Below are positions 7,303 to 10,300 of a stretch of DNA of 64,000 bases, one piece after another; the stretch's first letter is position 1, and every line of letters begins with the position of its first letter. The notes beneath the pieces are model-generated. The model was not told where the DNA came from, made no database searches, and saw only the letters and a program-made list of their open reading frames with translations. Origin of the DNA: Thuidium tamariscinum (lineage: Eukaryota; Streptophyta; Bryopsida; Hypnales; Thuidiaceae); assembly GCA_947034885.2 (NCBI GenBank), contig OX344755.2:22017052-22081051 (forward strand), written 5' to 3'. Position numbers and translations under genes: made by a program.

Positions 7303-10300
7303 ATGCAGGTTAGCGATATGGCGTCGGAATTTGGGTGGATGCTGACAGCGTTGGTAATCCTGGCAACAATCTGCATTGGAGTGTTCAAAGGGATCCTCGG
7401 TGATGGTGTTCAATTCGCACGAGCACCTCGAGACTTCCTTCTTGACCGCTTGGCCAGGTTCTGTCCACTTCATCACTCACTTTTGTTTGGGGCAACGAGG
7501 ACTTCATTTCGGACCCGATGGTTGGATGGAAACTCTGTCCCCTGACTTTCAGAAATTTTGAGTGATTTCTTGGTAGAATATTACTTTCTCACTCTGAATT
7601 CTTTCTTTTTGCATTCTCAAGAAAATTCTACCGCATGCACTTTAGTATGTGTTGTTTGCTAACGTGCGGATAAGTTAGAATTTGGATTGTTTGGATGCCA
7701 TATAAAAAGTCAAGAATTTTCACAATTTTGTTCTGCGAGTGAGTAAAACCTTGTGCAGGTTGACTGTTTAGTTGTTAGGCGTTGGCTTCGTCCCTAGATT
7801 CTAGATCGTAACATTTATTCGTGTCAAATAATTTATTGCATTAGAGAAGCTTGACTTCCATTTAAAACTCTTTCCATGCTTAAACTTTGGAGACTTGCGA
7901 TGTGCTATTCCCCGCGATTTTCATGTCTCATTCTCTGATTGTTTGGGTGTTCAGATATGGAGATCCTTTTACCATGTCATTGATGGGCAAAACGTACACG
8001 GTAATCAGTTCGCCTGAAACCATCAAGTTTGTTCTTTCGACTGCCCATGCATCTTTTCCAGAGGACTCTCCCATTCAGTTAAGTCGACTTCTCAGTCCGG
8101 AGAGGTATGCGGGTAAAACAAACATCCAAGTCAGGAAGATTATGCTTGCTGCCGCTTCAGGAGATGGACTTCAGAAGCTGGTCCCGTTCATCAGCTCCTT
8201 GGCCGAGAGAACTGTCAAGTCTTGGGAGCATCAAGCTGTGGTGAACTCGGAGGTAGAGTCGGAAAAGGTCAGTGGGTACAACTTACGGTTGCTTCAACGT
8301 TCATGGATTTTACTGCTCTCTTGATCATCTGATTATTTGTTCAAATTTCACCCCGGTTGATCGATGTGTGCGATAAGTGCAAATTCCTATCGTTTAGTTT
8401 TTGCGCAGAAATGGTAATCAAAGATATTGGGAAGGAGCAGGACGACCGTCTACGTCCTGCATGTAGCTTTCATTTCCATTTTAGAATTACAATGGTTGTA
8501 TTATTGAAGGTTGTTTAGGTACATTATACAGTAGTAGAGTTTGTGCACATGGCTTTGTGCTCTTGTAAGCACCGAGTGGCATATATGAGGGTGTGGATTA
8601 CGAGTCTTTGACTAACCACTCATTTTAAATCAACAAAACATGACATGTATCCTTTTTCAGCAATGTATACAGTTTTTATATTTTCTCTTAAACAGAACGG
8701 TTATGACCGTGAAAGGTTACTGTTCATTGCCAGTGTTCATCGTCGGCAAATGCTCCATGATGATATTTGTAGACTGACCCCTTTGATGGTTATTTGGTAG
8801 ATCGATGATGGTATTCCTAATGAAAATTTTGAACTGTCTGCAGTTTGCATTTAATGCTGGGATGCAGCTTCTGTGGAGGGATGCCGATCCTGGCTCGGAT
8901 GAAATGGACCAAATTAGGAACGAGATCTCCTGCATTGGAGAAGGTCTGGCGGTTTTACCCATCAATTTTCCTGGATTCAGTTTCCACAAGGCGTTGAAGG
9001 TGTGTTTTCCAGAGCATTTTTAGCCTTCTTAGTCATTAATTTTTTGATGTTCGTGATACTGAAAGCGGTAGAACCGGCGGTTGCTGCAAAATTTGAAGGC
9101 AGTATTAATCTGCAAGGCATGAGTCGATCTTAGAATATCTATTGTTCCCATGGAGGGGCGATTCAAGTTCCAACTTGCTCATCCAACTTGCTCAGAGTAA
9201 TTACCTATATTTGAAGTTGTTTGTGAGTCTTATCATTCACTTCTTGGATTTAGAGTTTAAAAACATTAGTTATGCTTAGAAATCTTCAGTTGAGCTTCTT
9301 GGAGGGCTACACATAAATGCGTCACCCCTTCAATACATGTCTCCATCAATACATTTGACATGACTCTACTGTAGCTTACAAATTTCCAGCATGACCAAAT
9401 CGGAATGTTAATAAACCAACTGCGTTGTCCACCTCCTGGAAATGTTGAATCAGGACAAAGAAGTTCTCATATCCCGCATTCAAAGGGACATCTCAAGGAG
9501 AAGGAAAGCTGGTATCCAACAAGATGATGTATTGAATGCTATTATGAGCATTGGGGAGGATGAAATATCGGATTACGATATATCTTGCATTCTGGTGCCA
9601 TTGTTGATTGCTGCTGTTTTAACAACGGGCGCCTTCATTCCTTGGGTTCTGAAGTACCTGGATGATTACCCCGAAGTACGTCAACGTGTACAGGTGAGAT
9701 CTTGTTTTTTTATAGAGTTATGCGGAGATGACCAGTTTTCATTCTACGCAAATTTCTGTGTTTGTGGTCAGTGTTTTTCACTTGCGTCGAACAAGTATGG
9801 TTGTAAGTCATAACTGATACCATCCTCACTTTCTTAACCTAGGTAGGGAATGGATACTTTGGCTGCTACCTAATTGCTACCTTAATTTGACATGGAAGAT
9901 AACACTTGCCATATGATGAGGGAAGGTTGGAACACCGCAGGATGGCTTGAATCTGGAGGAGGGTTGTTTGAAAAAGTAGTTTGACAGCACCTACTTCCTG
10001 CCAGTTCCTGTGGCTTGGTAGTTACTGTCAATGGCTGTCAACTTCCTTCAGATTTGCATGGTTACCCCGAACGTGTCTTGTCTTCATTTTTAGTTGCTGG
10101 AGATTAGATCACCAGTGTCACAATTGGTCCTTGAAGGACTTGTAACTCAAATTGTCACAGGAACTGTTCGGTGTGCAGAGTGTGTATACAATGTAAAATA
10201 GCGTTATTTGGAAGTTTGCAAATCTCATATTAACGTTTTTAATCGTTCATTCATCAGGAGGAACAAGATGATATCCGGCAGAAGATGGATGAAGACAAGT

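What the first reader, a model, noticed from the sequence alone, without database searches (positions are those of the whole stretch)
9610..9627. P450 family with a non-acidic I-helix, kept in three paralogues
The I-helix oxygen-activation motif is (A/G)Gx(D/E)T(T/S) in most P450s and AARDTT in CYP707. Here it reads AAVLTT (9610-9627), AAALTT (32454-32471) and AASVTT (55593-55610). The acidic residue is Leu, Leu and Val, while the Thr pair, ExxR, PSRF and the heme Cys are all intact. Independent damage to one residue in three otherwise open genes is unlikely, so the change probably predates the duplications and may be tolerated or selected. Altered proton delivery is known in P450s that do not perform standard mono-oxygenation, such as CYP74. 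This could be a P450 with isomerase/dehydratase-like or otherwise unusual chemistry.
Basis: partly seen in the sequence, partly recalled or inferred. Interest (0 to 1): 0.75.

Follow-up and report, generated by a model that had tools for sequence, protein, structure and literature searches.

The report
Moss P450s with a shifting catalytic acid
A moss genome carries a 28-locus cytochrome P450 family in which a nearly universal oxygen-activating acid has been replaced many times while the heme-binding core stays fixed, offering a natural test of how much that acid is needed.

Summary
In detail: AAVLTT (9610-9627), AAALTT (32454-32471) and AASVTT (55593-55610) lie in exon 4 of three open nine-exon P450 genes and align with AGHETS of CYP90B1. 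They are not a special trio. They belong to a 28-locus P450 bloom in this 363 Mb moss genome (22 loci on one contig). In the 25 copies with an open exon 4 the acid position holds E, D, S, A, G, L or V and is acidic in 7. The next residue, Thr, becomes Ser or Gly in some. ExxR, the PxRF Arg and the heme Cys are unchanged in the 19 copies used as intact and in the Ceratodon homologue, which itself reads AGSVTT. Nearest named family: CYP707 (W1 34% identical to one; D in 115 of 119 hits aligned). Selection is weak but real (omega 0.71; omega=1 rejected). The acid column is among the fastest-evolving codons (rank 6 or 11 of 447, by model), and fast codons concentrate in substrate recognition sites. 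Best reading: heme-competent P450s in which SRS4, catalytic acid included, was freed to diversify, with protons supplied by substrate or water. Non-monooxygenase chemistry and partial decay remain open. No transcript or assay was available.

The parts
7303..7457 (+). copy W1, exon 1 (membrane anchor; proline-rich hinge absent)
   Evidence: coordinates; hinge gap against P0001
7955..8267 (+). copy W1, exon 2
8844..8999 (+). copy W1, exon 3
9454..9693 (+). copy W1, exon 4 (I-helix)
9610..9627 (+). W1 oxygen-activation motif AAVLTT; acid codon at 9619 reads TTA (Leu)
10258..10347 (+). copy W1, exon 5
10596..10674 (+). copy W1, exon 6 (ExxR = EIMR)
11180..11286 (+). copy W1, exon 7 (DPSRF)
12054..12172 (+). 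copy W1, exon 8 (heme FGQGPHLCPG)
12753..12849 (+). copy W1, exon 9 to stop
30154..35486 (+). copy W2, nine exons: 30154-30308, 30817-31126, 31689-31844, 32298-32537, 33106-33195, 33439-33517, 34021-34127, 34611-34729, 35390-35486
32454..32471 (+). W2 motif AAALTT; acid codon at 32463 reads TTA (Leu)
53608..58138 (+). copy W3, nine exons: 53608-53762, 54290-54602, 54807-54962, 55437-55676, 56139-56228, 56464-56539, 57094-57200, 57714-57832, 58042-58138
55593..55610 (+). W3 motif AASVTT; acid codon at 55602 reads GTT (Val)
6730..14814 (+). duplicated segment holding W1, matching 29598-38765 (holding W2) in pieces 84.9-91.3% identical, introns included

Best explanation
The three genes belong to a P450 bloom of this moss lineage, related to but outside CYP707. 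Members keep the heme ligand and the E-R-R triad, and a homologue is predicted to have the P450 fold, but the I-helix acid is no longer held by purifying selection. As part of substrate recognition site 4 it diversifies together with SRS1, SRS5 and SRS6 (from sequence analysis). The enzymes most likely still bind heme and oxygen; in non-acidic members protons reach the iron-oxygen species through the remaining Thr/Ser plus ordered water, or through a hydroxyl of the substrate itself, as described for CYP107A1 (inferred). The likely role is specialised metabolism with changing substrates (inferred).
For: 28 exon-4 loci, the same set with two different queries. 20 of 21 joined models have no internal stop, and 18 of them show no evident lesion. 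Glu and Arg of ExxR, PxRF Arg and heme Cys are present in 20 of 20 rows (19 own copies used as intact plus P0001), while the acid column shows 7 residues; only 7 of 447 columns, this one included, are that variable. M0 omega 0.709, omega=1 rejected by 18.5 lnL. The Glu clade has omega 0.83 against 0.67 elsewhere, gain 1.6 lnL, so acid loss is not accompanied by faster decay. A beta>1 class improves fit (2dlnL 61 or 56 with constant synonymous rate, 22 with variable). Acid column rank 6 or 11 of 447, rank 3 in a thinned 12-gene set. SRS columns make 40% of the top 45 codons against 15% of sites, Fisher p 2e-5. Precedent for substrate-supplied protons: PMC10741444, passages.
Against: Omega 0.71 is high for an enzyme, and several copies are broken, so weak constraint explains part of the variability. 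With variable synonymous rates the acid column has posterior 0.83 for beta>alpha, below usual cut-offs; among the 12 non-acidic genes it ranks 17 (posterior 0.87), among 7 acid-clade genes 86. SRS2 and SRS3 are not raised (mean beta 0.72 and 0.73 against 0.74 overall). My SRS borders are approximate and were drawn after seeing the leading sites. Gene conversion among tandem copies was not modelled. Five copies (L024, L027, L028, L029, L032) also lack the Thr, which a Thr-based relay cannot explain. 6 of 18 other P450s read in this genome also lack the acid, so its loss is not peculiar to this family. No expression or activity data.
Confidence: 0.5

Rival explanations
1. Relaxed family: the bloom is in birth-and-death turnover, the ancestral activity is largely dispensable, and the I-helix acid drifts because catalysis matters little. 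Members are weakly active or act only as binders.
For: Omega 0.71 overall and 0.33-0.65 in the nine pairs compared. Of 28 loci, L030, L031 and the second locus in L033 are clearly broken, and L009, L010, L013, L019 and L025 carry lesions. No exon 1 read here has the proline-rich hinge of the Ceratodon homologue. Thr lost in five copies used as intact. L011 has CPR for CPG and L029 a changed C-terminus.
Against: Decay should hit all motifs alike, yet ExxR, PxRF Arg and Cys are unchanged in 20 of 20 and 111 of 447 columns are invariant (rows were chosen for an open model, not for these motifs). Omega=1 is rejected by 18.5 lnL. Change concentrates in SRS1, 4, 5, 6.
Confidence: 0.27
2. Non-monooxygenase P450s: the family isomerises or dehydrates an already oxygenated substrate, as CYP74 does with hydroperoxides, so no acid-alcohol pair is needed.
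For: CYP74 enzymes need neither O2 nor external electron donors (PMC3552686, passages). The 14 non-acidic rows examined have no D, E, H, K or R from -13 to +10 around the position. Some lack both acid and Thr (GAFGGT, GAFSGL, GAYGGP).
Against: No tie to CYP74 seen; the nearest named matches are CYP707-type, CYP90B1 and CYP725A4. Acidic copies of the canonical type (AASETS) sit inside the same family, which would imply two chemistries in one bloom.
Confidence: 0.15
3. Ancestral acid lost once on the stem and regained in the Glu clade and in L020, so acidic members are derived and non-acidic ones the founding type. A claim on history, compatible with the best explanation.
For: P0001 is non-acidic and branches outside the own copies (92/99). 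Within the family 3 changes suffice; acidic codons differ (GAG in the Glu clade, GAT in L020).
Against: Counts of changes cannot tell gain from loss, deep branches within the family have low support, and only one outside homologue is known.
Confidence: 0.4

Closest known systems
CYP707 (abscisic acid 8'-hydroxylase), clan 85
   Same: Best named hits of the Ceratodon homologue; shares AAx-TT and PSRF..PKPN.F.PFG.G.H.CPG, with His where most P450s have Arg ('most P450s' recalled).
   Different: W1 34% identical to P0053, P0001 31-39% to the 119 listed hits; Asp of AAxDTT replaced in 18 of 25 own copies (Glu in 6 more); separate clade with 100/100 support.
CYP90B1 and CYP725A4 (solved structures)
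   Same: Fold: TM 0.84 and 0.83 to the P0001 model; top sequence matches in the PDB.
   Different: 25-27% identity in the structure match; CYP90B1 has canonical AGHETS.
CYP74 (allene oxide synthase and relatives)
   Same: P450s that do not act as monooxygenases and need neither O2 nor electron donors (PMC3552686, passages); lack of the usual acid-alcohol pair is recalled.
   Different: No sequence relation seen; this family has an ordinary heme loop FGQGPHLCPG without the insertion that I recall for CYP74.
CYP107A1 (EryF)
   Same: Works with an incomplete I-helix pair; a substrate hydroxyl is the probable proton donor (PMC10741444, passages).
   Different: Lacks the Thr, keeps the acid (recalled); bacterial; a single enzyme, not a diversified family.
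CYP71AJ bloom in Apiaceae
   Same: P450 bloom with SRS divergence (PMC4482195, passages).
   Different: There the Asp/Glu with Ser/Thr is described as working in SRS4, and the three sites on which its two selection methods agreed lay outside SRSs.

Membership tests
Cytochrome P450 superfamily | Profile match and heme Cys in FxxGxxxCxG | tested here: met
   W1: PF00067 E 6.8e-49; Cys in 20 of 20 rows, glycine after CP in 19 of 20
Cytochrome P450 superfamily | E-R-R triad (ExxR and PxRF) | tested here: met
   20 of 20 rows for Glu, Arg, Arg; decayed L009 reads KTLK
Cytochrome P450 superfamily | P450 fold | tested here: met
   AlphaFold model of P0001, pLDDT 88.2; Foldseek to P450s. The window proteins themselves were not folded.
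Canonical oxygen-activating monooxygenase | Acid-alcohol pair (D/E)T in the I-helix | tested here: not met
   Acid in 0 of 3 window copies, 7 of 25 own copies with open exon 4, 0 of 1 Ceratodon homologue
Canonical oxygen-activating monooxygenase | NADPH- and O2-dependent turnover | not testable with these tools
   needs expressed protein
CYP707 | At least about 40% identity (usual family threshold, recalled) | tested here: not met
   W1 to P0053 34%; P0001 to the 119 listed hits 31-39%
CYP707 | AA[HRQ]DTT motif | tested here: not met
   115 of 119 hits have D, 4 have G; window copies have L, L, V
CYP707 | ABA 8'-hydroxylation | not testable with these tools
   no assay
CYP74 | Sequence relation to hydroperoxide-metabolising P450s | tested here: inconclusive
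   None of the hits listed is named as CYP74, but many have no name, lists were capped and no direct comparison was made
CYP74 | O2- and NADPH-independent reaction | not testable with these tools
   no assay

The most novel reading that the evidence does not exclude
A plant P450 family in which the catalytic I-helix acid has itself become a positively selected specificity residue: different duplicates pair a different residue (E, D, S, A, G, L, V) at the proton-delivery position with a different pocket, so that substrate and proton relay evolve together, and some members (GAFGGT, GAFSGL, GAYGGP) have left monooxygenation altogether.
Probability: 0.25. Interest if true: 0.85.

Novelty: new variant of a known kind. 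Interest (0 to 1): 0.6.

Why it matters
The acid-alcohol pair is taught as near-essential for P450 oxygen activation. Here about twenty related natural enzymes (56-96% identical among the 25 own copies aligned) differ at exactly that pair while the heme core is constant. Acidic and non-acidic relatives (for instance L016 AASESS and L023 AATGST, or L012 AASETS and W3 AASVTT) allow the need for the acid, and what replaces it, to be tested directly. It also shows a moss P450 bloom next to clan 85, which has only 8 genes in Physcomitrella (PMC11586672, table passage).

Tried and rejected
Considered and rejected: (1) wrong register or splicing of exon 4: alignments to CYP90B1, a CYP707-type protein and acidic paralogues fix the column. 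(2) Independent damage to three genes: excluded by family and Ceratodon data. (3) A shifted acid in the helix: no D, E, H, K or R from -13 to +10 in the 14 non-acidic rows examined. (4) Membership in CYP707: identity and motif fail. (5) The NCBIfam matches of P0001 are far below their cut-offs and were ignored. (6) A metabolic cluster in the window: only four ORFs were scanned; two gave a chaperonin match and a reverse-transcriptase zinc finger, two gave nothing, so other genes in the window are not excluded. Led nowhere: three protein searches gave only one moss homologue, from Ceratodon (candidate lists of 7,177-7,999 were scored). Ten literature searches listed no paper that by title or abstract start is about this family or about I-helix acid loss in mosses; the library lacks most subscription papers. 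The control P450s are high-ranking Pfam hits, not a random sample.

Full report
OBSERVATION. The window is C7:22017052-22081051 of a 363 Mb, 19-contig genome. The only close protein found outside it is from the moss Ceratodon purpureus, P0001, hypothetical protein M758_5G063700, 56% identical, so the source is taken to be a moss; the species was not identified. Three nine-exon P450 genes lie in tandem at 7303-12849 (W1), 30154-35486 (W2) and 53608-58138 (W3), all with AG/GT introns and open to a stop. W1 and W2 sit in duplicated segments that match in pieces 84.9-91.3% alike.

REGISTER. PF00067 matches W1 at E 6.8e-49. phmmer puts AAVLTT on AGHETS of CYP90B1, and BLASTP puts VLTT on RDTT of the CYP707-type protein P0053. 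The column is therefore the I-helix acid.

THE FAMILY. Two different exon-4 queries find the same 28 loci (lower bounds by the tool's own note): 22 on C7 between 19.5 and 23.0 Mb, 3 on C8, 2 on C3, 1 on C5. Besides the window's three I fetched stretches around the other 25. 25 of 28 have a whole open exon 4; L030, L031 and the second locus in L033 are broken. Of 21 joined gene models 20 have no internal stop. L013 (frameshifted exon 2) and L025 (lost exon-5 acceptor) are damaged, leaving 18 without an evident lesion (L024 uses a GC donor, L011 has CPR for CPG, L029 a changed C-terminus). With L020 (exon 1 not found in the fetched stretch) 19 were used for codon tests. L009, L010 and L019 are damaged; for L017 exons 7-9 were not found in the stretch fetched.

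THE MOTIF ACROSS THE FAMILY. W1 AAVLTT, W2 AAALTT, W3 and L011 AASVTT, L009 and L013 AASSTT, L010 AVSSTT, L020 AVSDTT, L012 AASETS, L014 AAFETT, L015 SAFETS, L016 and L025 AASESS, L018 TASETS, L023 AATGST, L021 AATAST, L022 and L026 SATAST, L017 and L019 AAFASS, L024 ASFAGS, L027 and L029 GAFGGT, L028 GAFSGL, L032 GAYGGP; Ceratodon AGSVTT. The acid is present in 7 of 25 own copies (6 of the 19 used as intact) and absent in P0001. In those 19 plus P0001, Glu and Arg of ExxR, Arg of PxRF and the heme Cys are 20 of 20, 111 of 447 columns are invariant, and only 7 columns reach the seven residues seen at the acid position. The 14 non-acidic rows have no D, E, H, K or R from -13 to +10 of the position.

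CONTROLS. Of the 119 listed hits of P0001 (139 found, P0001 included), largely named as ABA 8'-hydroxylases, 115 have Asp and 4 (Citrus) Gly. Of 20 other P450 loci of this genome fetched, 18 had a readable heme frame; 12 of 18 have Asp/Glu, 6 have S, N, N, N, A or T (my reading). So loss of the acid also occurs in another P450 group of this genome, which tempers the surprise. A CYP707-type query finds many further P450 loci here, among them 13 with 44-52% identity over a long heme exon; two loci read by me, L054 and L055, have AGHETA and AGHDTS.

PHYLOGENY. On a tree with the motif columns left out, the CYP707-type rows stand apart at 100/100 and P0001 branches outside the own copies at 92/99. 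Acid/non-acid needs at least 3 changes in the family, 5 with the CYP707-type rows, and 11 residue changes at the column over all rows. The W1/W2/W3/L011 group (94/83) is wholly non-acidic; six of the seven acidic copies form one clade (100/99) with L023 (Gly) inside it. Deep branches are weakly supported, and gain cannot be told from loss.

SELECTION. One-ratio omega is 0.709 (lnL -10048.68) against -10067.21 with omega fixed at 1; a separate ratio for the Glu clade (0.83 against 0.67) gains 1.6 lnL, and for W1/W2 (0.68) nothing (own code, optimiser capped at 25 iterations). W1-W2: dN 0.065, dS 0.120, intron divergence 0.091; nine pairs have dN/dS 0.33-0.65. Home-made grid mixtures on fixed IQ-TREE branch lengths, with empirical-Bayes sites: allowing beta above 1 gains 2dlnL 61 (constant synonymous rate) or, for beta above alpha, 22 (variable). 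The acid column ranks 6 of 447 (posterior 1.00) in the first and 11 of 447 (posterior 0.83) in a variable-rate fit; rank 3 in 12 thinned genes, 17 in 12 non-acidic genes, 86 in a 7-gene set of Glu-clade genes plus L020. SRS columns, borders approximate and chosen by me after seeing leading sites, hold 40% of the top 45 codons against 15% of all; SRS1, 4, 5, 6 are raised, SRS2 and 3 are not. Recombination was not modelled.

STRUCTURE. The P0001 model (pLDDT 88.2) matches CYP725A4 and CYP90B1 at TM 0.83 and 0.84, with one helix 260-291 across the motif. The six own copies aligned with P0001 lack 12 residues, including the proline-rich hinge, that P0001 has; none of the other exon-1 models shows it.

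INTERPRETATION. Motif-specific lability with a fixed heme core, constraint short of neutrality, and fast codons in SRSs argue for a diversifying P450 bloom, not random damage. How non-acidic members move protons is not shown; CYP107A1, where a substrate hydroxyl is the probable donor because the Thr is missing, is the nearest precedent read (PMC10741444, passages). CYP74 (PMC3552686, passages) shows that P450s can dispense with O2 and electron donors. High omega, broken copies and the missing hinge keep decay as a serious rival.

LITERATURE SEEN. Passages only: PMC11586672, PMC10741444, PMC3552686, PMC4482195, PMC6433873, PMC5750630. Physcomitrella has 8 clan-85 P450s (PMC11586672), and three of its genes are listed as CYP707A (PMC6433873). 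Other papers were seen as search listings only.

Noticed in passing
L044, L045, L046, L049, L050, L051 (other P450 loci of the same genome): A second P450 group lacks the acid at the usual place (S, N, N, N, A, T) and in each of the six has Asp or Glu four residues later (for example GGINTTTDTIEW); the proton relay may be shifted by one helix turn.
   Followed up: partly
P0082, P0141, P0154, P0165 (Citrus): Four Citrus proteins among the CYP707-type hits (P0141 and P0154 named ABA 8'-hydroxylase 4) read AAHGTT, with Gly for the catalytic Asp.
   Followed up: no
window 7303-7457, 30154-30308, 53608-53762 and exon 1 of other copies: The proline-rich membrane hinge present in the Ceratodon homologue is missing from every exon 1 modelled in this genome.
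   Followed up: partly
window 62053-62334 (+): Open stretch with a TCP-1/cpn60 chaperonin match (PF00118, E 4.8e-11, 36 residues), probably a CCT exon or gene fragment.
   Followed up: partly
window 44680-45108 (-): Reverse-transcriptase zinc-binding domain (PF13966), remnant of a retroelement between W2 and W3.
   Followed up: partly
L011 (C3:44.99 Mb): Near-copy of W3 on another contig (dN 0.017, dS 0.051) with CPG changed to CPR after the heme Cys: a dispersed duplicate, perhaps losing function.
   Followed up: partly
L033, positions 1069-1287 counted on its reverse complement: A further P450 fragment of a different family (FGLGPKTCIG) close to the C8 copies.
   Followed up: no
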